From positions 62,001 through 126,000 of the forward strand of contig PHCZ01000011.1 of the NCBI GenBank assembly GCA_002840895.1: a stretch of 64,000 bases of DNA, in the 5' to 3' direction. Below are positions 25,383-56,793 of the stretch, in pieces; within the stretch, counting starts at the first letter, position 1, and each line of letters begins with the position of its first letter. Source of the stretch: Bacteroidetes bacterium HGW-Bacteroidetes-8. Lineage in GTDB: Bacteria; Bacteroidota; Bacteroidia; Bacteroidales; UBA932. The notes under the pieces were generated by a model. The model was given only the letters and a program-made list of their open reading frames with translations, was not told the origin of the DNA and ran no database searches. A program made the position numbers and the translations under genes.

Positions 25383-26513
25383 CTATTTCAAAATCTCTGC
25401 AAGTTTGTCCAAAAGAGCTTTACCTCTTAAGTTCTTTGCCAGAATCTTTCCATTAGGATCTAGCAGCAGGTTTTGAGGAATCGACCTGATTCCATACATA
25501 GTTGATACCTCATTATTCCAATACTTAAGGTCGGATACCTGAGTCCAGGTAAGACCATCTTTCTCAATAGCATTAAGCCAATTCTGTCTCCCCTGCTCAT
25601 TATCAAGCGATACGCCAAGAACGGTAAATCCCTTATCTTTAAATTCGTTGAATGCCTTTACTACATTAGGATTCTCTGCACGGCAAGGGCCACACCAAGA
25701 TGCCCAAAAGTCTATCAAAACATACTTTCCTCTAAAATCTGAGAGTTTAACAGGGTTTCCGTTCGGGTCATTCTGAGTAAACTCGGGAGCAATTGCTCCT
25801 ACCATTGTTAACTTCATTTTATCCAGGCTTGCCGCAAATGCTTTCCCTGCTGTGCTGTTCTTTACATCTGAAGTTAGAGCCTCATACAGAGGAGCTACCT
25901 TTTGATAATCCGGAATAGATCCCCCTAATGCGATTATAGCATCAAGACTTATTACACTTGAAGGGTTTGACTTAATAAAAGCCAGTGTAGCTGCCTCCTG
26001 CTCTGCAGTGATTGCTGCATATCTTACTCCAAATGGTGCTCTCACAGCTTCATCCTTCTGTTTATCTGCTGGGAGTGCACTAAACTCTGCATTGAATGCT
26101 GCCATCTTATCTGCAGATGGTTTAAGGGCATTAATATAGTTTTGATTATCTGTATTCAACTTTGAGCCTGTAAATTTGGCCCCCTTAAGTGAATCCTTTG
26201 CAGTTATACCTATTACAGCTGACTCAAGGTAAACCTGAAGGTTTGGAAGTGTCCTGGATCTTGCACCTGTCCCTTTGTGATTAAGCACTAGGGCTGCCTT
26301 AATAGGTGCACCAACACTACCTTTAAATTCAAACTTACCATCTACAATTGCAGAGGAGTCTATAATAATTGCTGTTGCAGTACGGTAAGTAAGATATACT
26401 TTTGCCGGGGCATTAAGCTTAGCCACCTCACCTTTAATGGTGTAGGTTCCGTCTTGTGCAAACATTGCCATTGGAGCCAAAAGCAGTATAGCTGCTAAAA
26501 TTGTTTTTTTCAT
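25383..26513 (-). CDS. DUF4369/TlpA-like thiol-disulfide oxidoreductase, secreted
   Basis: The start at 26513 is chosen because MKKTILAAILLLAPMAMFAQ is a clean signal peptide; the longer frame adds ten unlikely residues. Residues about 22-120 form the beta-rich DUF4369-like domain (GTYTIKGEVAKLNAPAKVYLTY), followed by a helical linker with repeated Ala/Lys. The C-terminal thioredoxin domain (about 230-376) has APEFTQNDPNGNPVKLSDFRG and WASWCGPCRAENP. The family is very common in Bacteroidota and probably acts on periplasmic disulfides. It lies about 30 bp downstream of a similar gene, suggesting a tandem duplication and one operon. Confidence 0.87.
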   Translation of the reverse strand: MKKTILAAILLLAPMAMFAQDGTYTIKGEVAKLNAPAKVYLTYRTATAIIIDSSAIVDGKFEFKGSVGAPIKAALVLNHKGTGARSRTLPNLQVYLESAVIGITAKDSLKGAKFTGSKLNTDNQNYINALKPSADKMAAFNAEFSALPADKQKDEAVRAPFGVRYAAITAEQEAATLAFIKSNPSSVISLDAIIALGGSIPDYQKVAPLYEALTSDVKNSTAGKAFAASLDKMKLTMVGAIAPEFTQNDPNGNPVKLSDFRGKYVLIDFWASWCGPCRAENPNVVKAFNEFKDKGFTVLGVSLDNEQGRQNWLNAIEKDGLTWTQVSDLKYWNNEVSTMYGIRSIPQNLLLDPNGKILAKNLRGKALLDKLAEILK

Positions 26514-26545
26514 AAGATTATTAATTAGTGATTTACTATTCATTT

Positions 26546-27673
26546 TTATTTTTTGCCGAAAAGCTCGGCAAGCTTTTTCTCCAGCTCTCCGTTTTGAGTA
26601 AAGCCAACCTCTTTTAAAATTATCTTTCCGGCGGGATCTATTAAAAACGAAGTGGGGAATGCAGTTACGGCAAACTCACTCATAATGTTTTTACTATCCC
26701 ATACCTGTGGCCACGGATTATTTATTTGTGGCAGAATTTTTAACCAAGGTTCAATCTTTGAGTCTGTAGAGATGCCCAGAATCTCGAAGTTTTTATCCTT
26801 ATACTTTGCATAGATCTCTCTCATATGCGGGAAGGCCTGCTTGCAGGGAGCACACCAGCTTGCCCAGAAATCTATCCATACATATTTCCCTCTAAATGAG
26901 TCAAAAGATATTGGATTTCCGTTCTGGTCATTAAGCACAAAGTTCTTTACTTGTGACCCACTGTTTGTCCCTTTAACGCCACGAATATATGCGGCAACCT
27001 TCTCTCCATCGGGAGTTTTTTGAATTTGAGGTGAAAGCTTATCGTAAAGCTCCTCTAATTCTGTTATTTTTAATTGCCTCCCGGCTGAGTTTAAAATGTA
27101 GGCTCCGAGAAAAGAGTCCTTGTTCTCGCTAATACTAGAAGATAACAGATCTCTCATATATACCTTACTGAGCGAGTCTCTAAGGAAATTAATTTTAGGG
27201 TAAAGCGGATCATTTTGGGGAACCCACACCCTACCTAAAGAGCTCTCAATTTCGTCGCTTACTTTTGCTGTTATCTCATTTTGTTGTTTTAAAAAACTAT
27301 GAAAGCCTACTGTAGCGCTAGGGCCTGTTATTGTAGATTTAAAAAACCCTTGAGCTATCTCCAAATGAATAAATATATCTCCGGTTCCATCAATTAGCAA
27401 AGGGAATGGACGAAAACCAAGATTTATCTTCATTTCGTATTCTGTGTAAAAAAGCTGAGTATAGGTCTCGGTAAAAGGGAGTGTAATATTGAAGGTTCCA
27501 TCTACTATAATTGCCTCAGCCACCGGAGATGATTGGCCGTAATAGAATATTTTTTGATACCCCTTTGTATCTCCTGTAACTTTACCTGTGATATTTACTG
27601 ATTTAATCTCCTGAGCAGATGCAGAGAACACCAAGAGAGAGATTATTATTGTTGTAAAAAAATATTTTAAATT
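26546..27673 (-). CDS. DUF4369/TlpA-like thiol-disulfide oxidoreductase, secreted (paralogue)
   Basis: From the ATG at 27673 the protein has 375 residues with a signal peptide (FFTTIIISLLVFSASAQ). An N-terminal beta domain (KSVNITGKVTGDTKGYQKIFYYG) and a helical middle are followed by a C-terminal thioredoxin domain with WASWCAPCKQAFPH, GISTDSKIEPW and a cis-proline strand FPTSFLIDPAGKI. It shares its layout with the downstream gene and is probably its paralogue. It is likely first in a two-gene transcript. The region upstream holds repeat elements rather than an obvious TAnnTTTG box. Confidence 0.87.
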   Translation of the reverse strand, partial: NLKYFFTTIIISLLVFSASAQEIKSVNITGKVTGDTKGYQKIFYYGQSSPVAEAIIVDGTFNITLPFTETYTQLFYTEYEMKINLGFRPFPLLIDGTGDIFIHLEIAQGFFKSTITGPSATVGFHSFLKQQNEITAKVSDEIESSLGRVWVPQNDPLYPKINFLRDSLSKVYMRDLLSSSISENKDSFLGAYILNSAGRQLKITELEELYDKLSPQIQKTPDGEKVAAYIRGVKGTNSGSQVKNFVLNDQNGNPISFDSFRGKYVWIDFWASWCAPCKQAFPHMREIYAKYKDKNFEILGISTDSKIEPWLKILPQINNPWPQVWDSKNIMSEFAVTAFPTSFLIDPAGKIILKEVGFTQNGELEKKLAELFGKK

Positions 27674-27787
27674 CATTATTAATAATTTAAACGCACTCCA
27701 TAAATACACATAAAGGTGTAACCACCCTAAAGTGACATAAAGTTAAGACAACAAAAATGGGGATTAGTTTAATTACCCTCTAATAAA

Positions 27788-28083: not shown

Positions 28084-29526
28084 CTAGAGAATTCGCACAC
28101 CCTCTTGTGTATAATACTCAACAGGGGCAAATTTTTCGAGCGTCCCTTTTATATCGGCCACCTTCCCCTCAATAATAATTAGAGACTCGTATGGTTTAAT
28201 ATATTTTTGAGCTGCTTCTCTTATAGCTTCTGCCGTTACAGAGGCAATTTTGAGAGGGTAGGTAGTGAGGTAGTCGTCCGGAAGATTGAACTTATCCTTG
28301 ACCATCCCAAAGCCTATTATTGCCGGAGAGTTAAGCTGTGACATTGATCTGGCATAGTCGCCAATTAGTCCGTTCTTTGCCATATCAAGAGTTTTCGCGG
28401 AGACCAATTCGTTTCTCATCCTTAGCATTTCAAAAAAGATATTCTCAAGAGCGTATGCTGTCTGGGAATTTCTGACCAGAGTGTTACTGGAGCACTGCCC
28501 TCCGGTGATGTTGATCGAGAGGATATTGTTAGCTCCGTAACTCAACCCTTTATCTAACCTTATATTTTGATTGAGGTTGGACATATAGCCAGCTCCGTAT
28601 ATCTGATTCATAACCATTAGAAGAGCCTCATTCTCCCCGTAAGGAAACGCATCGCCCATTGGCCATCTTACAGATATTCTTGATTGTACAGCATTGGGAT
28701 TATCAATTACAAAGATTTTTGTTGATGTAGGAAAGCTCTTTGAGAAGCTGTTTTCAAAATCGGTTTTATTACGGACTCCCCCCTTCCATCCTTTAAAATG
28801 CTTCATAATTATGGCATTCGCCTCCTCAATTGTGAAATCTCCAGATAAAATGCAGTAACTGTTATCCGGGTTGATATATTTACTAAAGTAGCTCTCTACA
28901 GACTCTTTAGTTATATTTTTGAATTCCTCAACTGTCTCCTCCATTTTTGGAGGTGTAGTGCTTGTGTAAAAAGTCAAAGAGTCCTGTAACCTGGCAAGAA
29001 AAGTGCTCTTTGTAGGCTTTGCAACGGTTGTACCCGAGTCGGAAAGTTTTTTTAACCCTTTTTCAACCGCCTCTTTTACAGCATTATCATCAATTCCTGG
29101 GGAGGTGAGATAGGAGGTCATAATTGGGAAAAGAGTATCTATCTGGCTCTTCATCCCGGAACAGGTTACACTATTAACAAATCCTGTTATCGTAGCTGCA
29201 TATAAATCTGCTTTATCTTTTATCTGAGCAGCAGAGAATATGCTGCTCCCTTTTGAAAAAATATCTGAGAGTACTCTTCTTGCCTCAGGTTCTCTCTCAA
29301 GCGGGATCAATGGAACCCCAAACTCTACAGTTATCCTGAATTTTGGGTATCCGGCCTTTTTTATTAGAAAGACTCTCATATTGTTGTCGGCTACAAAAGA
29401 GTGGAACTCCCCGATTCGAATTGGCTTTGCCTCTGTAGGAGCCGGTTTTACATTGGGATCTATCTGAGCTTCCGCAACAGCAAAGGCGAATGTGAATAGC
29501 AGTATAAATAGTATTATCTTTTTCAT
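28084..29526 (-). CDS. M16-family peptidase-like protein, non-catalytic subunit
   Basis: The 480-residue protein has a signal peptide (LFILLFTFAFAVAEAQ) and the two-lobed M16 fold. The zinc motif HxxEH is absent at the expected N-terminal position, where PEARRVLSDIFSKGSS is found instead. The C-terminal lobe retains the R/Y signature region (IRLDKGLSYGANN, as in the family's ERGLxYS). M16 enzymes often work as a heterodimer of a zinc subunit and a non-catalytic partner. The zinc subunit is encoded 4 bp upstream. It is the last gene of the nine-gene operon. It probably acts in the periplasm in proteolysis of a protein or peptide. Confidence 0.9.
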   Translation of the reverse strand: MKKIILFILLFTFAFAVAEAQIDPNVKPAPTEAKPIRIGEFHSFVADNNMRVFLIKKAGYPKFRITVEFGVPLIPLEREPEARRVLSDIFSKGSSIFSAAQIKDKADLYAATITGFVNSVTCSGMKSQIDTLFPIMTSYLTSPGIDDNAVKEAVEKGLKKLSDSGTTVAKPTKSTFLARLQDSLTFYTSTTPPKMEETVEEFKNITKESVESYFSKYINPDNSYCILSGDFTIEEANAIIMKHFKGWKGGVRNKTDFENSFSKSFPTSTKIFVIDNPNAVQSRISVRWPMGDAFPYGENEALLMVMNQIYGAGYMSNLNQNIRLDKGLSYGANNILSINITGGQCSSNTLVRNSQTAYALENIFFEMLRMRNELVSAKTLDMAKNGLIGDYARSMSQLNSPAIIGFGMVKDKFNLPDDYLTTYPLKIASVTAEAIREAAQKYIKPYESLIIIEGKVADIKGTLEKFAPVEYYTQEGVRIL

Positions 29527-29530
29527 CTCT

Positions 29531-30856
29531 CTATTTCTTAGGGTAAATAACCATTATTTTGCGATTCTCTGGAACAAAATACTCCTTGACAACTCGCTTT
29601 ATATCTTCATTGGTAATTGACTTATACTCCGGGATCAGTCTGTTAACCCTTTGAGAGTCTCCCCACTCAAGATAACTTATAGCCAGAACATCTGCAAGAA
29701 ATGGCATATCAAAAAACATATCTGTAAAACCACTTTCATACGATAATTTTAACTGAGATAATCTTTTGGTATCAAGTCCTTTATCTGCAAGCTCCCTAAC
29801 AACTCCCTCTATGACATCAACCACTTTTTGGTAGTTTGTAGAGTCTTTAAAGCTGCTGCGGAACCAGAAGCTTCCAGCTTTTTCGTACATCTCTGTAGTT
29901 GACGAGATCTTTATTAATGCTTGATTCGTTTTCTCAATTAAACTCAATGGAGAGTCGGCGTCAAATGTAAGATGGCTGTTAATAAAAGTAATAATAGTTG
30001 CATCCGGGTGAGTCTCCGGAACTGTCTTGTATGAGACTACAATGTGAGGGTTTTTAAGCCCTGCAACAGAGTCTATTTTTACCTCCCCCGATATAAATCT
30101 CTCGGTGAAAACGGGCTGTATAACCGGCTTCCCTTTTGGAATCCTGTTAAAATATGCGTTTATGTACTTTTTAGCCTCAACAACATCTACATCTCCTGTG
30201 ATAACGAGACAGGCATTATTTGGGACATAAAATTTATTGAAGAACTCCTGAAAATCCCCTGTACTTGCGGCATCCAGATGCTCCATTGAGCCAACAACAG
30301 GCCATCTGTATGAGTACTCTTTATACTCAAATGCCTGCATCTTCTCCGGAACCCTTCCCAATGGATTTGTATCATATCTCTGGCGGCTCTCCTCCTTCAC
30401 AACCTCTTTCTCTCTTGCAATTACCTTTTCGGAGATAATTGGGTGCAGCATCCTCTCGGACTCTATCCAAAGCCCCAGCCTGAGTTGATTTGATGGGAGA
30501 ATGGTGTAGTAGTAGGTTCTGTCTGCAGATGTGTTAGCATTGCTATAACCCCCTGCCTCTCTCATATAGTTCTCCATCTCCCCTTCAGGAATGTTCTTTG
30601 TGCCATTAAATAGCAAGTGTTCGAAAAGATGAGCAAATCCGGTACGATCTGCTCTCTCATTTTTACTCCCCACGTGGTACATCACCCCTACATTTACGAT
30701 TGGAGATGTGTTATCCTGACAAATTATTACGTGCAGTCCGTTCCTCAGTTTGAACTCTATGGTTTTGGCTGTAGGTGCAAATTGGCTCTGCGCGCAAAGG
30801 GTCAGAAAGCTTAAAGATGCTATTGCAATAACTATTAATCTTTTCATATTGTACAT
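29531..30856 (-). CDS. M16-family zinc metallopeptidase, catalytic subunit
   Basis: The 441-residue protein has a signal peptide (IVIAIASLSFLTLCAQ). The inverted zinc motif H76-L-F-E79-H80 lies in TGFAHLFEHLLFNGT, and the distal glutamate is expected in IESERM. The first lobe continues with ANTSADRTYYYTILP, and the second lobe lacks the motif. The ATG overlaps the stop of the ChaN-like gene by one base; an ATG three codons later is an alternative start. With the non-catalytic neighbour it would form a periplasmic pitrilysin-like chamber that degrades small proteins or peptides. Related M16 proteases (FusC, PqqL) serve iron uptake by digesting imported ferredoxin. Confidence 0.92.
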   Translation of the reverse strand: MYNMKRLIVIAIASLSFLTLCAQSQFAPTAKTIEFKLRNGLHVIICQDNTSPIVNVGVMYHVGSKNERADRTGFAHLFEHLLFNGTKNIPEGEMENYMREAGGYSNANTSADRTYYYTILPSNQLRLGLWIESERMLHPIISEKVIAREKEVVKEESRQRYDTNPLGRVPEKMQAFEYKEYSYRWPVVGSMEHLDAASTGDFQEFFNKFYVPNNACLVITGDVDVVEAKKYINAYFNRIPKGKPVIQPVFTERFISGEVKIDSVAGLKNPHIVVSYKTVPETHPDATIITFINSHLTFDADSPLSLIEKTNQALIKISSTTEMYEKAGSFWFRSSFKDSTNYQKVVDVIEGVVRELADKGLDTKRLSQLKLSYESGFTDMFFDMPFLADVLAISYLEWGDSQRVNRLIPEYKSITNEDIKRVVKEYFVPENRKIMVIYPKK

Positions 30857-31854
30857 TATAGTGGACTAGCAATATATGTTACTGTCATATCGTCCTGTAC
30901 TACAATATTGAAGTTTGCTCTGTTGTCCCTCTCCTCAAAATTCATTACCTGAGACTTTTTGATTATCGAAGCTGTTTTTACCCTCACCTGTGGGTTGTAA
31001 TGCTTTAGATAGTACTCAATTGAGGTGTGGTTAGCAGAGTGAAACTCACCATTGAAATGGTAGAAGAATTTTCCCGGAGTCCAGTTTTTGAGAATAAAGT
31101 ATGCCATTGTAGCATCTTTAAGCGCTTGTGCTTTTACCAGATTAGATGGTCTGCTGCCGTGCATAGCCCCCATTGTTGGGCCACTCTCCTTCTGTTTCTT
31201 GTCAAACTCTTCGTCTGTAGGGAAAACAGATGCCATTTTTGCATATACAGGTTGTGTCAGGTCAAAGTGAATCGGAAGTGGTGGCATATAGCTTTTTGCT
31301 TGGTCCGAAAGCGAATCCAGATACTCTATTCCTTTTTGAAAAACGATTCTTGCATATCTTCTTGGAACATTTGTACAGATAAAGGGTAGTCCGTTCTGTT
31401 GGGCATAGACAAGTATTGGCTTATAGTCGGTAGTAAAATTTGACCACAGTTTACTGCTCTCCGTGTAAGATTTCCCATCAACCAGTTTAAGAACCATCAT
31501 CTCGTCCATAATAAGCTGGTTATCTGTCTCCCACATCTCTGCTCCAACAACCAGTTTCTCTCCCTTCATTTGGTGGAAAGCCTTTAGCAGACTCAACTCC
31601 AGCCAGTGTGAAATTGGATCATTATGAAGCTCCCCAAACAGAAAGATATCTGCATCAAGTAACTCATTAACCATTTGTGAATAGGTGACCTTTTCTCCTT
31701 TATCGTTGTATATCACATAGGCAGGAAAGTCGTTTGTATAGGTGTTTAACTGAGTCTCCTGTTTTGCCGGCGGGGTCTCTTTTTTCCCTTTGTTGCTCTG
31801 AGCAAAAAGTGAGACAGATAACAAAAGAAGTATTATGACTGATATTTTTTTCAT
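30856..31854 (-). CDS. ChaN-family (haem-binding/Tiki-like) secreted protein
   Basis: The 332-residue protein has a signal peptide (VIILLLLSVSLFAQ). A ChaN-like domain begins at about residue 70: ADIFLFGELHNDPISHWLELSLLKAF and then VVGAEMWETDNQLIMDEM, with the conserved GE-H and E-E motifs. Later come FICTNVPRRYARIV and HFNGEFHSANHTSIEYYL. Known ChaN-like lipoproteins bind haem as a dimer, and the wider Tiki fold includes metalloproteases. No lipobox is present. It lies between the barrel protein and the M16 pair in one operon, which suggests a role in handling iron, haem or a related cargo. Confidence 0.88.
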   Translation of the reverse strand: MKKISVIILLLLSVSLFAQSNKGKKETPPAKQETQLNTYTNDFPAYVIYNDKGEKVTYSQMVNELLDADIFLFGELHNDPISHWLELSLLKAFHQMKGEKLVVGAEMWETDNQLIMDEMMVLKLVDGKSYTESSKLWSNFTTDYKPILVYAQQNGLPFICTNVPRRYARIVFQKGIEYLDSLSDQAKSYMPPLPIHFDLTQPVYAKMASVFPTDEEFDKKQKESGPTMGAMHGSRPSNLVKAQALKDATMAYFILKNWTPGKFFYHFNGEFHSANHTSIEYYLKHYNPQVRVKTASIIKKSQVMNFEERDNRANFNIVVQDDMTVTYIASPL

Positions 31855-31877
31855 TTTATGCTTTTTATATTCTGTTA

Positions 31878-33437
31878 TTAGAAATTGAACACCAGATTAA
31901 CCGATATGTTCATATAGTTATCTTCCAATGTAAAGGAGGCAAGGCTTTCGTAATTTGAGATCGATACAGGTTTAATAAAATCTCCCTTTAAGTTTAACTC
32001 CACTCGTTGAGATCTGCTCGTATTGAACTCGGTGCCAAGAACCAGCCCCACTCTGTAAAAACCGGAAGTGAGATATGCAAACGCCGGTATAGCAATCTGT
32101 GTATTGTAAAAGTTCTCAGAAGCCGCCATCGGGTTATGTTTGCCGGAGATATTCATCTTGTAGGACCCAAATCCACCAATGATAAAGTTCACTCGCTCGA
32201 TACTACCAAGAGTGAGATCTGCAGATAGTGTCCCCTCCAGATTATTATAATCTATAGTGTGGCCGTAATTAAAATCGTTTTGGCCGGTGTTGTCAAAATT
32301 TATGTTTGCAGATACCCTTCTAAGTAAAGTTCCCTCTTTTAGATAGGCCAGGTAAAGATTTGCCTTTACTTTAAAAAGTTCATAGTTGTCCTGGAAGAGC
32401 CCTGCTGTCTCTTTATAGACAGCCCCTGTTCCCAGGATGTTTTTTACATCGAGATTTGAAATCCAGCTCCCGTTCTCTCTATTGTCTCTGAATCTCACTG
32501 CAAAATCCTGGCAAAGATATGAGTACCTCGCAATGTTCTCTTTTCTCTCCTGCAGAGTTGAGACAGATTTAAGCAACCAATCTTCATCTGCAAAATAGAT
32601 AGAGTAGATAAAATCCATAATCTTACTACCCTTTATATGCCTGAGAGAAGCTACTGCCCCATATCTGGCATCTATAGTTCGCATCTGGGACGGTGAGTTG
32701 TCCCAGGTTCCAAGCCCCTCGTTTAGAAAGAGATGATATCTTTCCGGTTCCGTTCCGTGTTGATATTTATTACGTATGGCCGACTCGTTTTTCACTCTGT
32801 TGAAAAAGAGCCCCAATGTTGCAAAACTCTTCTCTCCAAAACTCAGCGTAATGGAGGGAAGAATTTGCATATCAAGTGTATAGCTTTCATTTCTGGTGTC
32901 AAAAGTGCGGAAATTGAGGTCTCCAAGATATTTGAATGCAACTCCCGCACTTAATCTGTTTGACAGACTTTTTTGTATAGCAACATTAAAGTCATATGAC
33001 TGAGTTTTCCACGTCCCCTCCTGCTCAACCATATAGTAGAAAGGAGAGCCGTTTGAGGGCAGGTTGTAGGAGAGGTTCCATTTACCTGTTGTTGCATTAC
33101 CATTTGTGTATGCTACACTCCCGAAAAACCTTAGCCCCTTTTTTGAGAGAGTTTTTACAGATTCAGTCTTTATCTCCAGCAGATTTCTTGAAAAGAGCAA
33201 TTGAGGATGTGTATAATCTCCTTTTGAGCTTGAGTATCCAGTGGATATCAATGCAAAATCTCCTTTGTCCCAAAACCGCAACATCGAAGGAAGTTTTGCA
33301 TAGGTGTTAAAATACTCCTCTCTTTGTAATGATCTATCAACAATATCTTTTACATTAAGGGAGTCACTAACACCTGCAAGAGATATCTGTGTACAGAAGA
33401 GAGAGATTATAAGAATCGATAATTGCCTCTTTTTCAT
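31878..33437 (-). CDS. DUF6850-like outer-membrane beta-barrel protein
   Basis: The ATG at 33437 is taken as the start because it opens into a signal peptide (LSILIISLFCTQISLAG). The mature protein of about 500 residues is made of amphipathic beta strands with periodic aromatic residues and ends in LVFNF, a typical outer-membrane C-terminus. It starts SLNVKDIVDRSLQREEYFNTYAKLPSMLRFWDKGDFALIS. I recognise this as the family I recall as DUF6850, which accompanies a DUF4876 protein and a TonB-dependent receptor. It has no plug domain, so it may be a passive or accessory barrel. It sits 18 bp after the DUF4876-like gene in the same operon. Confidence 0.8.
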   Translation of the reverse strand: MKKRQLSILIISLFCTQISLAGVSDSLNVKDIVDRSLQREEYFNTYAKLPSMLRFWDKGDFALISTGYSSSKGDYTHPQLLFSRNLLEIKTESVKTLSKKGLRFFGSVAYTNGNATTGKWNLSYNLPSNGSPFYYMVEQEGTWKTQSYDFNVAIQKSLSNRLSAGVAFKYLGDLNFRTFDTRNESYTLDMQILPSITLSFGEKSFATLGLFFNRVKNESAIRNKYQHGTEPERYHLFLNEGLGTWDNSPSQMRTIDARYGAVASLRHIKGSKIMDFIYSIYFADEDWLLKSVSTLQERKENIARYSYLCQDFAVRFRDNRENGSWISNLDVKNILGTGAVYKETAGLFQDNYELFKVKANLYLAYLKEGTLLRRVSANINFDNTGQNDFNYGHTIDYNNLEGTLSADLTLGSIERVNFIIGGFGSYKMNISGKHNPMAASENFYNTQIAIPAFAYLTSGFYRVGLVLGTEFNTSRSQRVELNLKGDFIKPVSISNYESLASFTLEDNYMNISVNLVFNF

Positions 33438-33455
33438 AATCTGAATCAATTTTTT

Positions 33456-34706
33456 CTATTTCTTGTCGTAAGAGTAAGGTGTTGGTGGAGTAACCACTTC
33501 GAGATCTACAGTTGAGTTATTTGTATCCATCACAACAACTCTGCCTGTAGATAGTGTTTTAGCAATTTTCCTGCGAAGACTCTTCCCGGTATAGTTGGCA
33601 CTTCCGTTGGCCTGAGCATAAGAGAAGCCTGAGTCGATATTTGCAGGAAGACGTTTAAATGCTGCCGAACTGCTCTTTGCAAGTATATCTACCCCGTCAA
33701 TTATAGCGGTTACCGGTATCTTGGTATAGAACACCTGAGTTGTGGTTATTGTAGGGTCCTGTATGGTCTCTGTAGGGTTTGCACTCAATCTTACCAATGC
33801 AATCGATGCATAGTCATCCATATTGAAGAAGCCGTTGTTTTGAATATTCAGGAAAATGCAATTCATAGTTGGAACATCCGGATTATCTACATCAAAGAAT
33901 GTACTTCCTGTTCTTCCCAGAGACTGTAACCAGGTAATCGCATAGGTGTCAAACTTAGCTTTAGTATTATCTACAGTTACAGCAAGCGGTTTCAACTCCT
34001 TATAGTTAATTGCATTTATTGCAACAACTGCACCCATTCCCGGTTGAATCGGGTATTGTGTTCCTGTTCCCGGAAACTGAAGTATCTTGGATGCATAAAC
34101 CACACTTGTAAGAGGAAGACCAAGAACAACATCATTGGCATTTTGTCCCGCTTTAGTCGGGCCTAAGAATGCAACATAGAGTTTATCTAAATATTGAACC
34201 TCATCTGAGTTATTGTAGATTTCAAAAAACTGATCTTTGAACATTATTGCGTAACCGTCGTTGGCTGCACCAAGTGAATAAACCTCTTTAATTACAAGAT
34301 CTCCTCCGGCCTTACCGTCCAGGGTAAGTGTCTGAACACTGGTCTGTAGCGGTAGAACTGTAATATTTGAGGCAGATGCATTGATAGTAACAGCCTTGTT
34401 AAAGCCTGTATAGTTAAATGCCACCTCTGGAGTCAACTCTATAGAGGAAGAAATATTGTAGGTCGATGGAGCAATATCTTCAAATTTGGCAACACCAGCT
34501 GGATTGGTTAAAACCACCTTTTTTGTGTTGTCAACAGTGTTTGTAATCTCAACAGGGATATTACTTAGTGTCACTCCGTTGAATGCTGCAGATGCTTTTA
34601 ATGTAACCTGAATAATCGAGAGCTCCGGGGCCTGCTTCTCACACGCAGAGAAGGTCAGTAACGAACCTAATGCAATAAGTGCTAATGTAAAGTTAATTTT
34701 TCTCAT
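33456..34706 (-). CDS. DUF4876-like surface lipoprotein
   Basis: The 416-residue protein has a lipoprotein signal (ALGSLLTFSAC, Cys 21). An N-terminal beta-sandwich domain resembles a carboxypeptidase-regulatory or SpaA-like fold (LKASAAFNGVTLSNIPVEITN, GVAKFEDIAPSTYNIS; about 35-115). The larger C-terminal domain has GGDLVIKEVYSLGA and DQFFEIYNNSDEVQYLDKLYVA, a pattern I associate with DUF4876 and with lamin-tail-like domains. It lies between the TonB-dependent receptor and the barrel protein and is probably surface-exposed, perhaps capturing the receptor's cargo. Confidence 0.8.
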   Translation of the reverse strand: MRKINFTLALIALGSLLTFSACEKQAPELSIIQVTLKASAAFNGVTLSNIPVEITNTVDNTKKVVLTNPAGVAKFEDIAPSTYNISSSIELTPEVAFNYTGFNKAVTINASASNITVLPLQTSVQTLTLDGKAGGDLVIKEVYSLGAANDGYAIMFKDQFFEIYNNSDEVQYLDKLYVAFLGPTKAGQNANDVVLGLPLTSVVYASKILQFPGTGTQYPIQPGMGAVVAINAINYKELKPLAVTVDNTKAKFDTYAITWLQSLGRTGSTFFDVDNPDVPTMNCIFLNIQNNGFFNMDDYASIALVRLSANPTETIQDPTITTTQVFYTKIPVTAIIDGVDILAKSSSAAFKRLPANIDSGFSYAQANGSANYTGKSLRRKIAKTLSTGRVVVMDTNNSTVDLEVVTPPTPYSYDKK

Positions 34707-34727
34707 AATTAATTGTAATTTAGTTTA

Positions 34728-37364
34728 TTATATTTTAAAAGTTATTCCAAATCCGAATGATATTTTGCTGTTGAGCGAGGTTCTGAAGTTGTTGATTACA
34801 TCTGTGTAATATGGGTTATACCAGAAGCAGTTGTTAGCATAAAAGGTAAAACTATGCCCCTGCTTTGTCTCTTTTCTAATGTTAAGGTGAAAGTTCGGGT
34901 AAAAAGGAGATTTTGAGGGGTAGGCTTGTGTAGGATTTAATTGCAAATCTTTATACTCTTCGCTGTCTCTAAGCTCCTGAGGAATCTCTATATAATTGGC
35001 CATCTCGTCGTAGTAGGCTACAGGCCTAAGGTCCGGATTAACATTGACAGATTTGTTGTAGATATTCAACTCCGTTGTAAGAGTTATAATAATTCTTAAG
35101 TCGGGAATCTGCTGTATAACTGTAAGGTTAGCACTGGCTATCTGAACACTCCGCACCCAGCTTTGGTATACCCCATATCTACTTTGCGAAACCGAATTGT
35201 TTGAAACCCGAACCGAGGGAACGTTATCAAATGTCTCACTGGAAATATATTGACCTGTAAGGTTTATACCGGTATTGGTAGATTTGATTCTTGGTGGTGA
35301 GAATGTCAACTCTACACCTTTTGTTTCGGATCTTTGGTTATTAACATATACCGAATATGTTCTTGGAAGATAGGTTACATTGTTGGGGTCCTCCTCCACA
35401 ATAGGGGGCCTTCCCACAGGCTCAGATACAATCTTATATCCCTGATTTTTGAATACTGCAAGCTGGGTTGCAGAGGTTATCCCTCTCGAGAGCAGCTTTT
35501 GGTAACCTGTCAATCTAATGTTATAGCCAGATCTATCATACTCCAGAGCGATCTCTCTAGTCTCTCCTCTGCCCGGTTTCAGCGATGTGTTATTTGGCTT
35601 TATTACATATGAGGTAACAATTGCCAGCCTCTCTTCCGGTTTAGGGTCGTAGTAGCTTAGATTTACCAGGTCAAAATAGACAGGGCCGGGGTACAGAGTG
35701 ATCATTGCAGGCGCTTTATATGATACTCCCCAGGCTCCTCTAATTTTAAAACTCTTTTTAACCCCTAGTGTGGCTGACACTCTGGGAGAGAATAGGTTAT
35801 ATCTCTCAATAATTCTATCATACCTGAGCCCCAACCGTAAATTGTACATAATATCCTTAAACTCCCTTGTAATGGTTGTTTGGTGATAGAGCGAAAAATT
35901 CTTTGATGCCGGGAGCTCATTAAAGAGGACACCTCTGCTCCCGGGTGTTCCTGCCGGGCCTACCCCCCCCTCTCCCTCTACTCTCCCTTTCCCGAAGTTC
36001 TTGTCGTAGGTATACTCCATTCCGGTTGTAAAGGATAGGTTATTGTTTGCTATTACACTGTTCTGCTCTGCCTCCAACCTTGCATATCCGTTTATTGGAA
36101 GCCCCTCCATAACGGTAGTCTGCATATAGCTCAGAGGTGAATAGGTTGTAAAATATGTGCCGGTTTCGGTAGGCTCAACCATTGGTCTGGGACCGTCTGT
36201 AACCTCCTGCTCCAGCTTAGTATATTGTGTCGTTAAATTGAGACTAAGAGTATAGTTGAGCTTCCCAAGAAGATCTAACCTCCCATTAATCCCGAACATA
36301 AATCTGTTATTCTTTATATCTCTGTTTGAGAGTAAAACCTCCTGAGGCTCAATCCTGCGTCCGTCTCCACTAAAGCCGTATGAGGCAGATAGTGTGTTGT
36401 TCCAGTTTAACTTTTCGTTTAGAGTTGCTGTCCATCTGGCCCCAACGTTAACTCTCTGGAAGTAATCTCTTACCTCTGTTGGTTGGCCAACAGAGTAGGC
36501 GTAGTCTGTATCTAAATTTAGATATCCCAACTTTTTAAGCTTGAGCCCTCTTGAGAGACTTGCCTGGTATGTAGATGGAGTTGAGTTGAAGGAGATGCTC
36601 AATGGGGAGTAACCCGCCTTCCTCGTTACAATTACCGCTCCCGATGTGATGTTCCCGTATCTGGCACTTGCAACCCCTGTTACAACCTCTACCGACTCAA
36701 TATTTGATGCAGGTATCTCTCTTAAATCAAGACCTTTATTGGCAACATTAGTTCCCCCTGAAAGGCTGGAAGCGGGGTTTGCCACCTGCAGATTTGCATC
36801 GTTGCTTAGGGGAGTTCCGTCTACAACTATTGCAGTTCCAAATGAGTTTACTGCAGATGTCTCTGCTGTCCTTAAATCCAGTTGAGCTGTTAGGGTTAGT
36901 TTTTGGGGCTGAAGTTTTCCTCCGGGCAGTAGTGACATTACATCACTAAGACTTATGGCCTGAACCTGCTTTATAGCCTCGCTTCCTATTGAGTATGTGC
37001 TTGAACCCTCTTTGCTCTGAGAGGTTGTAGCTGTCACAACAACCTCGTTCAGGCTTAAAGACATCTCCTTAAGAGAAAAGCTGACAGCAGAAAGCTCTCC
37101 GGTTACCTTAAGCAACCTCTCTTGAGGCTCAAAGCCCAGAATTGAAACCTTGATTTTATGCTCTCCGGAAGGGATCTGCAGTTTATACTCCCCCTTTTCG
37201 TTAGAGTAGGTAAAATACTGGGTCCCCTGTACAAATACAGATGCAAAATAGATAGGCTCACCTGTAGTTTGAGAGGTGATTCTTCCCGAAACAGTCTGTT
37301 TTTGAGCTGATGCTATAAATGGCAGAGTTATAAATATCAGCCCCAGTAAAATTATATTTTTCAT
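34728..37364 (-). CDS. TonB-dependent receptor of the nine-gene operon
   Basis: The 878-residue protein has a signal peptide (IILLGLIFITLPFIASAQ), a carboxypeptidase-regulatory-like domain (about 22-105, VSGRITSQTTGEPIYFASVFVQG), a plug domain (about 115-250: LNEVVVTAT, VVDGTPL, IPASNIESVEVVTGVASARYGNITSGAV) and a barrel of about 600 residues ending ISFGFGITFKI. The ATG overlaps the upstream stop (ATGA). It is not SusC-type, having no SusD partner. A G8 tract (minus strand, 35963-35970) inside the coding region encodes part of EGEGGVGPAG in an extracellular-loop-like region. A one-base slip there would truncate the receptor. Confidence 0.92.
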   Translation of the reverse strand: MKNIILLGLIFITLPFIASAQKQTVSGRITSQTTGEPIYFASVFVQGTQYFTYSNEKGEYKLQIPSGEHKIKVSILGFEPQERLLKVTGELSAVSFSLKEMSLSLNEVVVTATTSQSKEGSSTYSIGSEAIKQVQAISLSDVMSLLPGGKLQPQKLTLTAQLDLRTAETSAVNSFGTAIVVDGTPLSNDANLQVANPASSLSGGTNVANKGLDLREIPASNIESVEVVTGVASARYGNITSGAVIVTRKAGYSPLSISFNSTPSTYQASLSRGLKLKKLGYLNLDTDYAYSVGQPTEVRDYFQRVNVGARWTATLNEKLNWNNTLSASYGFSGDGRRIEPQEVLLSNRDIKNNRFMFGINGRLDLLGKLNYTLSLNLTTQYTKLEQEVTDGPRPMVEPTETGTYFTTYSPLSYMQTTVMEGLPINGYARLEAEQNSVIANNNLSFTTGMEYTYDKNFGKGRVEGEGGVGPAGTPGSRGVLFNELPASKNFSLYHQTTITREFKDIMYNLRLGLRYDRIIERYNLFSPRVSATLGVKKSFKIRGAWGVSYKAPAMITLYPGPVYFDLVNLSYYDPKPEERLAIVTSYVIKPNNTSLKPGRGETREIALEYDRSGYNIRLTGYQKLLSRGITSATQLAVFKNQGYKIVSEPVGRPPIVEEDPNNVTYLPRTYSVYVNNQRSETKGVELTFSPPRIKSTNTGINLTGQYISSETFDNVPSVRVSNNSVSQSRYGVYQSWVRSVQIASANLTVIQQIPDLRIIITLTTELNIYNKSVNVNPDLRPVAYYDEMANYIEIPQELRDSEEYKDLQLNPTQAYPSKSPFYPNFHLNIRKETKQGHSFTFYANNCFWYNPYYTDVINNFRTSLNSKISFGFGITFKI
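35963..35970 (-). repeat. G8 homopolymer inside the TonB-dependent receptor gene
   Basis: Eight consecutive G residues on the coding (minus) strand fall within codons for Glu-Gly-Gly-Val. In the sequence as given the frame is open. Tracts of this length are prone to slipped-strand mispairing. Confidence 0.8.
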
Positions 37365-37861
37365 CAATTATTATCCGGTTGAGGTGTTGACTGGGTGCCA
37401 AGAGTGATTGAAGTTTTTGAGATAACCTCGTTGAATTTTCTTACCTGTTCCGGGGTGCAGATTCCTCTTATGTTCTCATAAAATTTCATCGTCAAATCTC
37501 TGTTAAGGGATTGTGCCATAATAAAATCTTCATAAATTTTATTCAGAACAACAGTGTCATTATCTGCTCCTGCGGTATTAAACCTCTCCTTAACGCTTCT
37601 TAGCCTCATCCCTACCTCTTTCAGACTCAAACTATAATCGTTCACAATTGAGTCAAAAACCTCGACTTGATTCCCGGAAAGGCTCAGATACTTAACAAAA
37701 AAGGTGTTCACCCCCTCTATGCTTCTCTTGGACTGGGCCTCTCTCTGCTTGGCGAGATACATATTAACACCTATGGTACTGACAATAGTGATGTTAAAAA
37801 TTGCCAGAATTATTACCCAGAGCTTTAATCTTCTTACTGATTTCAAATAATTACTACTCAT
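37364..37861 (-). CDS. Membrane-anchored Spy/CpxP/CnrX-like periplasmic protein
   Basis: The 165-residue protein has one N-terminal membrane anchor (about 12-33, LWVIILAIFNITIVSTIGVNM) and then a helical periplasmic part. It contains LSLSGNQVEVFDSIVNDY and a late CTPEQVRKFNEVI, reminiscent of the LTxxQ repeats of Spy/CpxP and of the CnrX sensor. There are no histidines, so a metal site like that of CnrX is not evident. It follows a sigma factor and a small membrane protein, the same order of roles as in sigma/anti-sigma/sensor trios. It probably senses an envelope signal and frees the sigma factor. Its stop overlaps the receptor start. Confidence 0.75.
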   Translation of the reverse strand: MSSNYLKSVRRLKLWVIILAIFNITIVSTIGVNMYLAKQREAQSKRSIEGVNTFFVKYLSLSGNQVEVFDSIVNDYSLSLKEVGMRLRSVKERFNTAGADNDTVVLNKIYEDFIMAQSLNRDLTMKFYENIRGICTPEQVRKFNEVISKTSITLGTQSTPQPDNN

Positions 37862-37870
37862 ATCTCTGAA

Positions 37871-38194
37871 TTAAAATGGTAAAAAAAATGCTCCAAACCC
37901 AACACTCATAATATCTACACCTACAGAATCCGAGATAGAACCGGCAGCACTTGATATCTCATACAGGTTGCCGATAATGCACCCTATACTTACCGAAGCA
38001 GCTATTGATACACCATAGATAAATGCAGTCTTGAAGGTGAGCCGTTGAGTTTCAAAGGTGGCTTGCAGGCTCAGCTCCGTCACTCTATCCATAATCATAT
38101 CAACTCTGTTACTCTGTAAAACCATCTCCTTCTCATTTTCGATAGCGGTGTAGAGTTGTTTTTCAAAATCTGAATTATTGTAAGTCGTTTTCAT
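37871..38194 (-). CDS. Small single-pass membrane protein, probable anti-sigma factor
   Basis: This 107-residue protein has a soluble N-terminal part of about 50 residues (DFEKQLYTAIENEKEMVLQSN), then a hydrophobic segment (about 55-75, FIYGVSIAASVSIGCIIGNLY) and a short tail. It has no sequence signature I recognise. It overlaps the ECF sigma gene by 20 bp and precedes the Spy-like gene by 9 bp, the position and topology of a minimal anti-sigma factor such as CnrY. That role is inferred from context only. Confidence 0.65.
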   Translation of the reverse strand: MKTTYNNSDFEKQLYTAIENEKEMVLQSNRVDMIMDRVTELSLQATFETQRLTFKTAFIYGVSIAASVSIGCIIGNLYEISSAAGSISDSVGVDIMSVGFGAFFLPF

Positions 38195-38753
38195 TTATAA
38201 CTGATATTAATTTTTCTTTTAACTGTTTTTTTGCTCTTTGAATAAGCGATTCAACTGCGTGAACCGATAGTGACATAATCTTTGCAATCTCTTTTTGGGA
38301 CATATCGTCTAGTCTGCTAAATATAAATGCTACTCTCTGCCTCTCAGGCAGCCGGTCTATCTCCTTATAGATAAGCTCTTGCGCCTCTTTACTTGACAAT
38401 AATCTGTGAGGGTTGTCATTTTTATTTGTTTGTAAAAGATTGGCAATTGCTCCAATTTTTGTTTCGTAAAAAGAGGAAATTGTTCTCTTATCTCTCTTTC
38501 TTAAAAAAGTATATGCACTGTTTATCCCTATCCTATATAACCAGGTCGAGAACTCCGAACTCCCCCGAAAACTCCCCAAAGAGATAAAGGCCCTTAGGAA
38601 TGTCTCCTGAGTAATGTCTTCGGCATCTTGCACCTGATGAACAAATCCCCTTGAAAGAATAAATATCCTTTCGTGGTATCTCTCCACTAGTAGACGAAAC
38701 ATCTCTGTCTCGCCATCAAGAACTCTCTCGATTATTTTATCCTCCGATATCAT
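38175..38753 (-). CDS. ECF RNA polymerase sigma factor (RpoE-like)
   Basis: From the ATG at 38753 the protein has 192 residues. A GTG three codons upstream is an alternative. Region 2 is clear (about 15-80: FRLLVERYHERIFILSRGFVHQVQDAEDITQETFLRAFISL, FSTWLYRIGINSAYTFLRK). Region 4 follows (about 130-185: IDRLPERQRVAFIFSRLDDMSQKEIAKIMSLSVHAVESLIQRAKKQLKEKL). It is the first gene of a tightly spaced nine-gene operon and presumably drives that operon on release from the small membrane protein. A G8 tract lies about 45 bp upstream of its start. Confidence 0.92.
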   Translation of the reverse strand: MISEDKIIERVLDGETEMFRLLVERYHERIFILSRGFVHQVQDAEDITQETFLRAFISLGSFRGSSEFSTWLYRIGINSAYTFLRKRDKRTISSFYETKIGAIANLLQTNKNDNPHRLLSSKEAQELIYKEIDRLPERQRVAFIFSRLDDMSQKEIAKIMSLSVHAVESLIQRAKKQLKEKLISVINENDLQ

Positions 38754-38796
38754 TGTATACACCTCTTAGACGCAACTTGTAAGAAAATCCGTCGTT

Positions 38797-41193: not shown

Positions 41194-41745
41194 ATGTTAA
41201 ACGATCTGTTGCTCATTAAAAAAGTTAAAGAGGGGGATATTAAGGCTTTCGAAATCCTTTTCCGGAAATACTATCCCCCTCTCTCTTATTATGCTGTTAC
41301 CATAACCGGCATAAGTGATGCAGCAGAAGATATTATTCAGGACCTCTTCTACCATATGTGGAAAGAGAGGGAGAATGTTCAAATATTCAGCTCTTTGAAA
41401 AGTTACCTCTATAGCGCTGTAAGAAACAGATCCCTTCAATATTGCGAAAGGAGAAAGCTGGACGAGAGATACAGAGGGAGCAACCTCAACCTAGGCTCCC
41501 AGGCAACGGAGCCCGATTCCCTTAACGGAATTGAGTACAGAGAGCTGGAGCAGATAATTAAAAAGAGTCTTGAGAGAATGCCTTCCAGAAGAGTAGAGAT
41601 TTTTCGAATGCACAGGTTTGGTAACCAAAAATACAGGGAGATTGCAGAGGCTCTCTCCGTTTCAGTTAAAACAGTTGAGGCCGAGATGACAAAGGCACTT
41701 AAAGAGATAAGAAAAGAGATAGAACTTCACACTTCAATATTATGA
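41194..41745 (+). CDS. FecI-type ECF RNA polymerase sigma-70 factor
   Basis: The 183-residue protein has region 2 (AFEILFRKYYPPLSYYAVTITGISDAAEDIIQDLFYHMWKERE, about 16-60) and region 4 (LERMPSRRVEIFRMHRFGNQKYREIAEALSVSVKTVEAEMTKALKEIRKEI, about 125-178). It matches the Bacteroidota FecI family. Its stop overlaps the FecR start (ATGA). The target would normally be an adjacent TonB-dependent receptor, but here an STN-domain protein without a barrel follows. Confidence 0.92.
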   Translation: MLNDLLLIKKVKEGDIKAFEILFRKYYPPLSYYAVTITGISDAAEDIIQDLFYHMWKERENVQIFSSLKSYLYSAVRNRSLQYCERRKLDERYRGSNLNLGSQATEPDSLNGIEYRELEQIIKKSLERMPSRRVEIFRMHRFGNQKYREIAEALSVSVKTVEAEMTKALKEIRKEIELHTSIL

Positions 41746-50002: not shown

Positions 50003-50029
50003 AATCATATTCTTATTAATATTTAACCC

Positions 50030-56782: not shown

Positions 56783-56793
56783 TTCTAAATCAA

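What the first reader, a model, noticed from the sequence alone, without database searches (positions are those of the whole stretch)
28084..38753. Nine-gene ECF-controlled operon linking a TonB receptor, two accessory surface proteins, a ChaN protein and an M16 protease pair
Seen: nine minus-strand genes with gaps of about 25 bp or less or overlaps (two ATGA/TAATG type): ECF sigma, small membrane protein, Spy-like sensor, TonB-dependent receptor, DUF4876-like lipoprotein, DUF6850-like barrel, ChaN-like protein, catalytic M16 (HLFEH), non-catalytic M16. Known: ChaN-family proteins bind haem, and M16 proteases FusC and PqqL digest imported iron proteins. Inference: the operon imports a haem- or iron-carrying protein or peptide, cuts it in the periplasm and hands on the cofactor. 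I know of no described system with this exact set.
Basis: partly seen in the sequence, partly recalled or inferred. Interest (0 to 1): 0.85.

Follow-up and report, generated by a model that had tools for sequence, protein, structure and literature searches.

The report
Outer-membrane importer wired to a protease
A bacterial gene cluster pairs an outer-membrane importer and a surface protein with a two-part protease, and related clusters carry other proteases in the same slot, which suggests that they take in and cut up proteins or peptides, probably for iron or haem.

Summary
The nine genes are there as described and form a conserved unit. The full set recurs in five other genomes. TBDT, DUF4876, DUF6850, ChaN and the M16 pair recur in seven more loci, including Flavobacteriaceae with changed gene order. 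In five genomes 8 of 15 DUF4876-type receptors, against 0 of 135 others, have a co-directional M16 or S46 peptidase downstream. In a wider sample the slot holds S46, M16, met-zincin or gingipain-like C25+HEAT proteins, or instead DUF4857/ABC genes or a di-haem peroxidase. The M16 pair resembles the two-chain Sphingomonas peptidase 3AMJ, not single-chain FusC or PqqL. In print, other DUF4876 loci are strongly induced by low iron. Verdict: probably a Bacteroidota counterpart of the Fus 'protease-associated import' systems, with a different receptor type and interchangeable proteases. Iron or haem as cargo and a protein as substrate are inferred; a small-molecule substrate stays open. New variant of a known kind.

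The parts
38765..38794 (-). Putative ECF-type promoter, CGACGGATT-15 nt-TCTAAG, just upstream of the ECF gene
   Evidence: Both blocks and the spacing are shared with L202, L203, L204 while the linker differs (the script aligned the wrong gene for L201, whose copy was found). Exact copies in 5 of 280 loci, each at this operon. The only exact copy in each of 5 genomes with the operon; none in L205's genome or in 4 same-genus genomes without ChaN
38175..38762 (-). ECF sigma factor (195 aa from GTG; ATG at 38753)
   Evidence: Pfam Sigma70_r2 and r4_2; TIGR02937
37871..38194 (-). Small protein (107 aa) with one hydrophobic stretch, likely anti-sigma factor
   Evidence: Position, overlap with ECF, hydrophobic stretch by eye; no Pfam match
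37364..37861 (-). Membrane-anchored Spy/CnrX-like putative sensor (165 aa), no histidine
   Evidence: Two of six family members match Metal_resist, best E 0.0022, the window protein none; His count
34728..37367 (-). TonB-dependent receptor with CarbopepD_reg_2 domain, no STN domain detected
   Evidence: Pfam
33456..34706 (-). DUF4876 lipoprotein, probably surface-exposed
   Evidence: PF16215; Cys22 present in 45 of 45 rows, 34 with two or more acidic residues in the next seven; profile matches solved structure 4Q1Z, E 2.3e-79
31878..33449 (-). DUF6850 protein, probable outer-membrane beta-barrel
   Evidence: PF21012; signal peptide and terminal Phe by eye; no solved relative at E<=1
30856..31854 (-). 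ChaN-like protein with signal peptide
   Evidence: PF04187, 166 bits; profile matches 2G5G, E 1.6e-10
29531..30856 (-). Catalytic M16 subunit (HLFEH)
   Evidence: Pfam; H76, E79, H80 and E155/E156 invariant in 11 rows; best solved match 4NNZ, then the 3AMJ active subunit
28084..29526 (-). Non-catalytic M16 subunit with R-x6-Y pair (R323, Y330)
   Evidence: No HxxEH; best solved match the 3AMJ inactive subunit, with R and Y in register; both invariant in 13 rows

Best explanation
The operon encodes a protease-associated import system. The DUF4876 lipoprotein, on the cell surface, captures a protein or peptide ligand and hands it to the TonB-dependent receptor; the DUF6850 barrel helps at the outer membrane. 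In the periplasm the two M16 proteins form one clam-shell peptidase: one chain brings the zinc site, the other the R/Y pair that completes it. It cuts the imported polypeptide, and ChaN binds the released haem (or acts as a further hydrolase). The ECF factor, a small anti-sigma protein and a Spy/CnrX-like sensor switch the operon on. Shown: gene content, conservation as a unit, active-site residues kept and split over two chains, peptidases preferentially coupled to this receptor type, a shared promoter-like block. Inferred: that the substrate is a polypeptide, that it carries iron or haem, ChaN's role, and what the sensor detects.
For: ChaN with M16 genes in 12 of the 80 named DUF4876 loci, gene order changed in three (the 80 were the best matches to the window protein, so close kin are over-represented). 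8 of 15 DUF4876-type receptors against 0 of 135 others have a co-directional M16 or S46 gene within 9.5 kb. S46, M16, met-zincin and C25-like proteins alternate in the same slot and have been exchanged repeatedly. Catalytic motifs mostly kept. Two-chain M16 match. FecR-type regulators in other lineages. DUF4876 loci 20.8-214.5-fold up in low iron in P. gingivalis, BT3631-33 112-128-fold and BT1933-39 3.5-7.4-fold in B. thetaiotaomicron (PMC10434189 passages). The Fus systems show the same pattern: FusC, other proteases, or cytochrome c peroxidase where FusC is absent (PMC6793856, section 6 read).
Against: 44 of 137 sampled loci have no recognised cargo gene, and 26 have DUF4857/ABC genes instead, so the receptor core does not need a protease. 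I saw no iron data for a ChaN/M16 locus. The sensor has no histidine and the receptor no detected STN domain, so nothing in the regulators points to iron. 5 of 8 ChaN genes in the family lie away from DUF4876. Receptor-M16 links are not unique to this type: 5 of the 135 other receptors face a fused M16 gene head to head. PqqU suggests that an M16-linked receptor can import a small cofactor.
Confidence: 0.52

Rival explanations
1. The system imports peptides as food (nitrogen and carbon), not iron. The surface lipoprotein and receptor take up oligopeptides and the M16 pair shortens them for amino-acid catabolism, as S46 dipeptidyl peptidases do elsewhere.
For: In the sampled loci S46 enzymes are the second commonest peptidase after the C25+HEAT type, though 0 of the 80 named loci have one in the 6.5-kb window. 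An M28 peptidase lies 4.2 kb downstream in the window and in L089.
Against: DUF4876 loci are among the genes most induced by low iron in two species. ChaN, di-haem peroxidase and PepSY-type partners fit iron or haem better. FecI/FecR regulators.
Confidence: 0.2
2. The system imports a small cofactor or metal chelate (haem itself, a siderophore, a PQQ-like molecule). The M16 pair trims a peptide tag or a peptidic chelator, or removes stray peptides, and is not needed to digest a protein.
For: PqqU, as I recall the receptor of the PqqL neighbourhood, is reported as a PQQ importer found also in Bacteroidota and Gemmatimonadetes (PMC12124388 passages). The receptor profile hits ferric enterobactin receptors. 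Many DUF4876 loci have no recognised protease.
Against: Four unrelated peptidase classes have been recruited to the same slot, which is easiest to explain by a polypeptide substrate.
Confidence: 0.22
3. The M16 pair and ChaN do periplasmic quality control or defence (for example cleaving harmful peptides that enter through the receptor), and are co-expressed with the receptor for protection.
For: A Spy/CnrX-like sensor next to an ECF factor is more typical of envelope stress than of iron (general knowledge); the M16 enzyme HrrP degrades host peptides aimed at bacteria (table in PMC12731061).
Against: The same peptidase set is kept where FecR stands in place of the sensor module (L211, L212, L225) or where no sigma module is seen next to the receptor (L206-L208, L213).
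Confidence: 0.06

Closest known systems
Fus ferredoxin uptake system (FusA/FusC) of Pectobacterium and other 'protease-associated import systems' of Proteobacteria (Grinter 2019)
   Same: TonB-dependent receptor plus periplasmic M16 protease in one operon; in both, other proteases or a cytochrome c peroxidase can stand in the protease's place
   Different: Receptor profile finds no entry named FusA or YddB; surface DUF4876 lipoprotein and DUF6850 barrel are extra; M16 is two chains, not one; ChaN present; lineage is Bacteroidota (the survey section read speaks of Proteobacteria; 'Bacteroid' occurs once in the text, for SusC)
PG1019-PG1022 of P. gingivalis and BT1933-39, BT3625-33 of B. thetaiotaomicron (low-iron stimulon, PMC10434189)
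   Same: DUF4876 lipoprotein with TonB-dependent receptor, induced by low iron
   Different: 'M16' and 'insulinase' do not occur in that text; ChaN was not searched for there; several genes are listed only as hypothetical; function not worked out in the passages seen
SPH2682/SPH2681 M16B peptidase of Sphingomonas sp. A1 (3AMJ)
   Same: Active and inactive subunits; HxxEH on one, R-x6-Y on the other
   Different: No receptor operon known to me; only distant sequence similarity
XusABC xenosiderophore system of B. thetaiotaomicron
   Same: TonB-dependent receptor plus surface lipoprotein, iron-induced
   Different: Lipoprotein is DUF4374; PepSY protein instead of proteases; ligand is a siderophore
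CnrYXH sigma/anti-sigma/sensor module (recalled)
   Same: ECF factor, small membrane protein and membrane-anchored periplasmic protein of the Metal_resist/LTXXQ kind in one cluster
   Different: Window sensor lacks the histidines that bind metal in CnrX (recalled); weak profile match only

Membership tests
Fus-type protease-associated import system | Receptor belongs to the FusA/YddB family | tested here: not met
   By sequence only: a profile of nine receptors hits 17 solved sequences at E<=0.001 (SusC, RagA, ferric enterobactin and colicin I receptors and some with generic names); none is named FusA or YddB
Fus-type protease-associated import system | Periplasmic M16 protease in the same operon | tested here: met
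   Pfam, signal peptides by eye; M16 with ChaN in 12 of 80 named loci
Fus-type protease-associated import system | Single-chain FusC/PqqL-type M16 | tested here: not met
   Two chains of 441 and 480 aa; FusC and PqqL entries rank below 4NNZ and 3AMJ; fused ~930-aa M16 occurs at other DUF4876 loci
Fus-type protease-associated import system | Imports and cleaves an iron-carrying protein; iron-dependent expression | not testable with these tools
   Only published expression data for other DUF4876 loci
M16B two-subunit peptidase | HxxEH...E on one subunit | tested here: met
   Invariant in 11 rows
M16B two-subunit peptidase | R/Y pair on the partner subunit | tested here: met
   R323 and Y330 invariant in 13 rows, aligned with R and Y of 3AMJ chain B
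M16B two-subunit peptidase | Subunits form a complex | not testable with these tools
ChaN (PF04187) | Profile score above the curated cut-off | tested here: met
   166.1 bits against 27.7
ChaN (PF04187) | Binds haem | not testable with these tools
   Profile aligns to 2G5G over positions 27-282 of 314; ligand residues not checked. Invariant GExH, E106, E109, H266 and H272 in 14 rows would also fit a Tiki/EreA-like hydrolase (recalled)
Cnr-type ECF/anti-sigma/sensor module | Sensor with Metal_resist fold | tested here: inconclusive
   Two of six members match, best E 0.0022, window protein none
Cnr-type ECF/anti-sigma/sensor module | Histidine metal ligands (recalled) | tested here: not met
   0 His in the window protein and in three of five relatives; 1 and 2 in the others

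The most novel reading that the evidence does not exclude
DUF4876/DUF6850 receptors define a large, unrecognised class of import systems of Bacteroidota, with members in Gemmatimonadota. They bring whole proteins or long peptides across the outer membrane and digest them in the periplasm with interchangeable proteases of four kinds (M16 zinc, met-zincin, S46 serine, C25-type cysteine), or strip the cofactor with a di-haem peroxidase. The window's ChaN/M16 form would be the haem-protein specialist, and P. gingivalis PG1019-1022 and strongly iron-induced B. thetaiotaomicron loci would belong to the class.
Probability: 0.4. Interest if true: 0.82.

Novelty: new variant of a known kind. Interest (0 to 1): 0.62.

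Why it matters
Protein import across the outer membrane for nutrition has been shown for few systems (general knowledge). If DUF4876 receptors do this, several strongly iron-induced and still unexplained loci of gut and oral Bacteroidota gain a testable function, and two domains of unknown function (DUF4876, DUF6850) gain a role. The repeated swapping of unrelated proteases in one operon slot would be a natural experiment on what the importer needs.

Tried and rejected
That gave 4Q1Z for DUF4876 and nothing for DUF6850.

Considered and rejected: (a) chance neighbourhood of M16 and ChaN; (b) HEAT proteins as mere scaffolds: their N-terminal part has an invariant HG and Cys in 27 of 27 aligned rows, and 4 of 27 match Peptidase_C25, best E 2.9e-6. 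Against this, a loose regular expression found both motifs in 50 of 52 long frames, and neither the single-sequence nor the profile search of solved structures found a gingipain, only HEAT repeats and unrelated weak hits; (c) the Trx/TlpA-like genes 25383-27709 as part of the unit: after a 374-base gap, next to the operon in L089/L201 but not among the genes printed for L202-L208; (d) metal sensing by the Spy-like protein through histidines.

Weak or negative: gene-by-gene identities follow the receptor only moderately over 11 operons (Spearman 0.29 to 0.57 over 55 pairs; L201 and L205 were not in this set). The promoter scan was about two standard deviations above shuffles (42 against 31.8, sd 5.2), the terminator scan at the shuffled level (11 against 10.9). 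One-mismatch copies of the promoter block occur about as often as the reversed control pattern. The ~290-aa lipoproteins that follow DUF6850 in four named loci scanned matched nothing convincing in Pfam. The FecR-linked receptor L211 has no detected STN domain either. S46 frames without the GNSG-type motif include the one at the window genome's own met-zincin locus, L053 (3 of 27 lack it).

Counting caveats: the 120 regions were picked by hand from the matches, favouring those with downstream DNA. L114 and L120 gave no DUF4876 hit by phmmer and L190 duplicates L090, so they were left out of the 137, which includes the window; the 137 is a slightly different set (tblastn, without window and L190). 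Greedy ORF picking can hide genes under antisense frames (L205 did). One search used the 150 Plug matches listed of 186, and I left out one S46 fragment (22 listed, 21 used). At least five named loci repeat sampled genomes (L201, L207, L214, L240, L243).
Full report
What is there. Its DUF4876 protein is 97% identical to that of the MAG Bacteroidetes bacterium HGW-Bacteroidetes-5 and about 80% to those of the MAGs UBA5548 (Bacteroidales), HGW-Bacteroidetes-7 and UBA12406 (Rikenellaceae), so it is probably a member of Bacteroidales. The nine genes were confirmed at the given coordinates, tightly packed on the minus strand, with Pfam support for seven of them. The small protein has no family match, and the Spy-like one only through relatives.

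Is it a unit? I collected related loci in two ways. First, searches for DUF4876 (PF16215) found matches in 15 of 198 genomes across the phylum, 67 of 119 in the same family and 48 of 295 in the same order. I fetched 139 regions around matches. Among these 80, 12 have both ChaN and M16 genes within 6.5 kb downstream of DUF4876 on the same strand, and 2 more have ChaN alone. The full set recurs in L201-L205; in L205, an uncultured Alistipes, the 106-aa small protein is matched by position only, and ChaN and the catalytic M16, first hidden by an antisense frame, were confirmed. L206 (Marinilabilia rubra), L207, L208 (Labilibaculum) and L213 (Saccharicrinis) have receptor, DUF4876, DUF6850, ChaN and the M16 pair with no sigma gene among the genes printed. 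In L211 (Maribacter), L212 and L225 (Formosa) the order is M16, M16, ChaN, and the operon starts with an ECF/FecR pair. A set that survives a change of order and of regulator is very likely a functional unit. In a receptor tree of 129 rows (FastTree) the four ChaN-bearing sampled loci (window, L089, L174, L121) form one fully supported group.

Chance. In five same-genus genomes, 8 of 15 DUF4876-type receptors have a co-directional M16 or S46 gene within 9.5 kb downstream, against 0 of 135 other receptors (Fisher 1.2e-9; 150 of 186 Plug matches were listed and used; the genomes are related, so the P value is only a guide). Five of the 135, one in each genome, do face a fused M16 gene head to head, so receptor-M16 links are not confined to DUF4876. 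In 119 family genomes ChaN is rare, 8 genes in 7 genomes, and 3 of the 8 lie within 5 kb downstream of DUF4876 against 0.0175 expected (P 5.4e-7; leaving out the near-copy genome G308, 2 of 7, P 8e-5). The other five ChaN genes are elsewhere, two of them weak partial matches.

What fills the slot. In 137 sampled loci the genes after DUF4876/DUF6850 fall into types: C25-like+HEAT 27, DUF4857/ABC 26, S46 14, M16 13, met-zincin+S46 4, ChaN+M16 3, BNR 3, di-haem peroxidase 2, ChaN only 1, none recognised 44. A second count by tblastn in a fixed 6.5-kb window gave, of 137 loci, 65 with a protease, 26 with DUF4857 and 2 with a peroxidase, with no overlap; of the 80 named loci, 21 with a protease, 27 with a peroxidase and 1 with DUF4857, again no overlap. 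The exclusiveness is not absolute outside that window: L066 has DUF4857 and, further on, an M16 gene, and L266 and L279 have DUF4857 upstream and a C25-like gene downstream. M16 needs at least 9 changes on starred branches of the receptor tree, so it has come or gone many times. The HEAT proteins deserve note: the part before the repeats carries an invariant His-Gly and an invariant Cys in 27 aligned sequences, and 4 of 27 match Peptidase_C25, the gingipain family, best E 2.9e-6. I read them as cysteine peptidases of that kind; searches of solved structures found no gingipain, mainly HEAT repeats. S46 frames keep a GNSG-type motif in 24 of 27, and met-zincins keep HExxHxxGxxH in 5 of 5.

The M16 pair. 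The first chain has HLFEH and conserved downstream glutamates, invariant in 11 sequences; its best solved relatives are 4NNZ and the active subunit of the Sphingomonas peptidase 3AMJ, with FusC and PqqL entries lower. The second chain lacks HxxEH; its best relative is the inactive subunit of 3AMJ, and R323 and Y330, invariant in 13 sequences, align with R and Y of that chain. A review places this R/Y pair in the fourth domain, where it completes the active site (PMC12731061, section 3.2 and passages read). So the window encodes a split M16B-like enzyme, whereas many other DUF4876 loci have a fused form of about 930 aa.

The surface parts. DUF4876 has a lipoprotein cysteine in 45 of 45 aligned sequences, followed by two or more acidic residues within seven positions in 34 of 45, which resembles the Bacteroidota surface-export signal (recalled). 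Its profile matches 4Q1Z, a solved 'putative lipoprotein' (E 2.3e-79). DUF6850 has no solved relative at E<=1. The window receptor shows no STN signalling domain, while two FecR-linked receptors, L053 and L066, do; a third, L211, does not.

Regulation. Upstream of the ECF gene a block CGACGGATT-15 bases-TCTAAG keeps both halves and the spacing in L202, L203 and L204, while the linker has diverged (the script took the wrong gene for L201, whose copy turned up). Among 280 loci, five carry it exactly, each at this operon. In ten genomes it occurs exactly once in each of five, all with the operon, and not in L205's genome or in four same-genus genomes without ChaN. The pattern came from these sequences, so its presence is by construction; its uniqueness is not. 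One-mismatch hits are at the level of the reversed control. It looks like an autoregulated ECF promoter with a very small regulon. The sensor has no histidine in the window, so a Cnr-like metal site is unlikely.

Iron. In PMC10434189 (passages read) PG1019-1022 are 20.8-214.5-fold, BT3631-3633 112-128-fold and BT1933-1939 3.5-7.4-fold up in low iron. BT1933-39 includes a HEAT-repeat protein, and BT3625-33 includes DUF4857, ABC and PepSY genes, which resembles two of the types found here. In PMC10470040 (one passage) a DUF4876 gene changes with haemin in the same direction as HmuY; in PMC12119571 (passages) PG_1019 varies together with HmuY in an RNA-binding-protein mutant; in PMC10101095 (one passage) PG_1019 and PG_1020 rise with the hmu genes. 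None of these loci is known to me as a ChaN/M16 type, so iron control of the window operon is an extrapolation.

Comparison with the known. The Fus system and its relatives were described as protease-associated import systems, and the survey reports that clusters without FusC in multiple cases carry a cytochrome c peroxidase, and some carry other proteases (PMC6793856, two sections read). The DUF4876 clusters show the same alternation with a different receptor type, a surface lipoprotein and an extra barrel. Receptor membership in the FusA family was tested by sequence and not met. A caution: PqqU of E. coli (YddB, as I recall) has since been reported as a PQQ importer also present in Bacteroidota and Gemmatimonadetes (PMC12124388, start of abstract and passages), so an M16 neighbour does not prove protein import.

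In print? Searches of the open-access library for DUF4876 (3 papers), DUF6850 (0), ChaN with TonB-dependent, M16 and heme (2), PG1019/PG1020 (8, 6 listed), a DUF4857/PepSY/HEAT/S46 mix (1) and BT locus tags (1) showed no description of this system. Two broader searches were seen only in part: 15 of 90 papers and 3 of 12,560. Subscription papers and preprints were not searchable.

Verdict. I give 0.52 to import and digestion of an iron- or haem-bearing polypeptide, 0.22 to a small-cofactor substrate, 0.20 to plain peptide nutrition.

Noticed in passing
G000:C16:55884-59209 (within about 6 kb before the window start at C16:62001): A second receptor (about 650 aa) faces a fused M16 gene head to head; the same pair is present in all five same-genus genomes tested, an independent receptor-M16 link without DUF4876.
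   Followed up: partly
L051 3226-7686 (two frames) and 65 other HEAT-labelled frames: HEAT-repeat proteins at DUF4876 loci, often in tandem pairs, look like gingipain-type (C25) cysteine peptidases.
   Followed up: partly
L052 11677-13632, L122 10280-12289, L117 9957-11915: A ~650-aa membrane protein with 4Fe-4S domains lies near S46 or M16 genes at these DUF4876 loci; L138 6847-8811 looks alike at its start but was not scanned. It could be an electron donor for releasing iron.
   Followed up: no
L224, L235, L241, L242, L244-L248, L250-L253, L256, L258, L259, L261-L265, L267, L269-L271, L276, L278: In Flavobacterium, Pedobacter and other genera a di-haem peroxidase (CCP_MauG type) follows the DUF6850 position in 27 of 80 named loci, never with a co-directional protease in the 6.5-kb window.
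   Followed up: partly
L219, L222, L223: The receptor-DUF4876-DUF6850 core is also in MAGs titled Gemmatimonadetes or Gemmatimonas; L217, also so titled, has a DUF4876 match and a receptor.
   Followed up: no
G000: C16 (window), C17:181344, C17:199311, C11:815157: The genome carries four DUF4876 systems with four different downstream sets: ChaN+M16 pair, C25-like HEAT pair, S46, and met-zincin+S46.
   Followed up: yes
window 22269-23861 (-): M28 peptidase 4.2 kb downstream of the operon, also present at the same distance in L089.
   Followed up: no
window 13622-17467 (-): A 1281-aa open frame without any Pfam match at E 1e-6.
   Followed up: no
window 41194-42584 (+): A second ECF-like gene (by similarity to the first) followed by a FecR-like gene (Pfam).
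   Followed up: no
window 48194-53191 and 54197-59469 (-): Two SusC/SusD-like pairs close to the operon, the second SusD-like protein unusually long, 861 aa.
   Followed up: no
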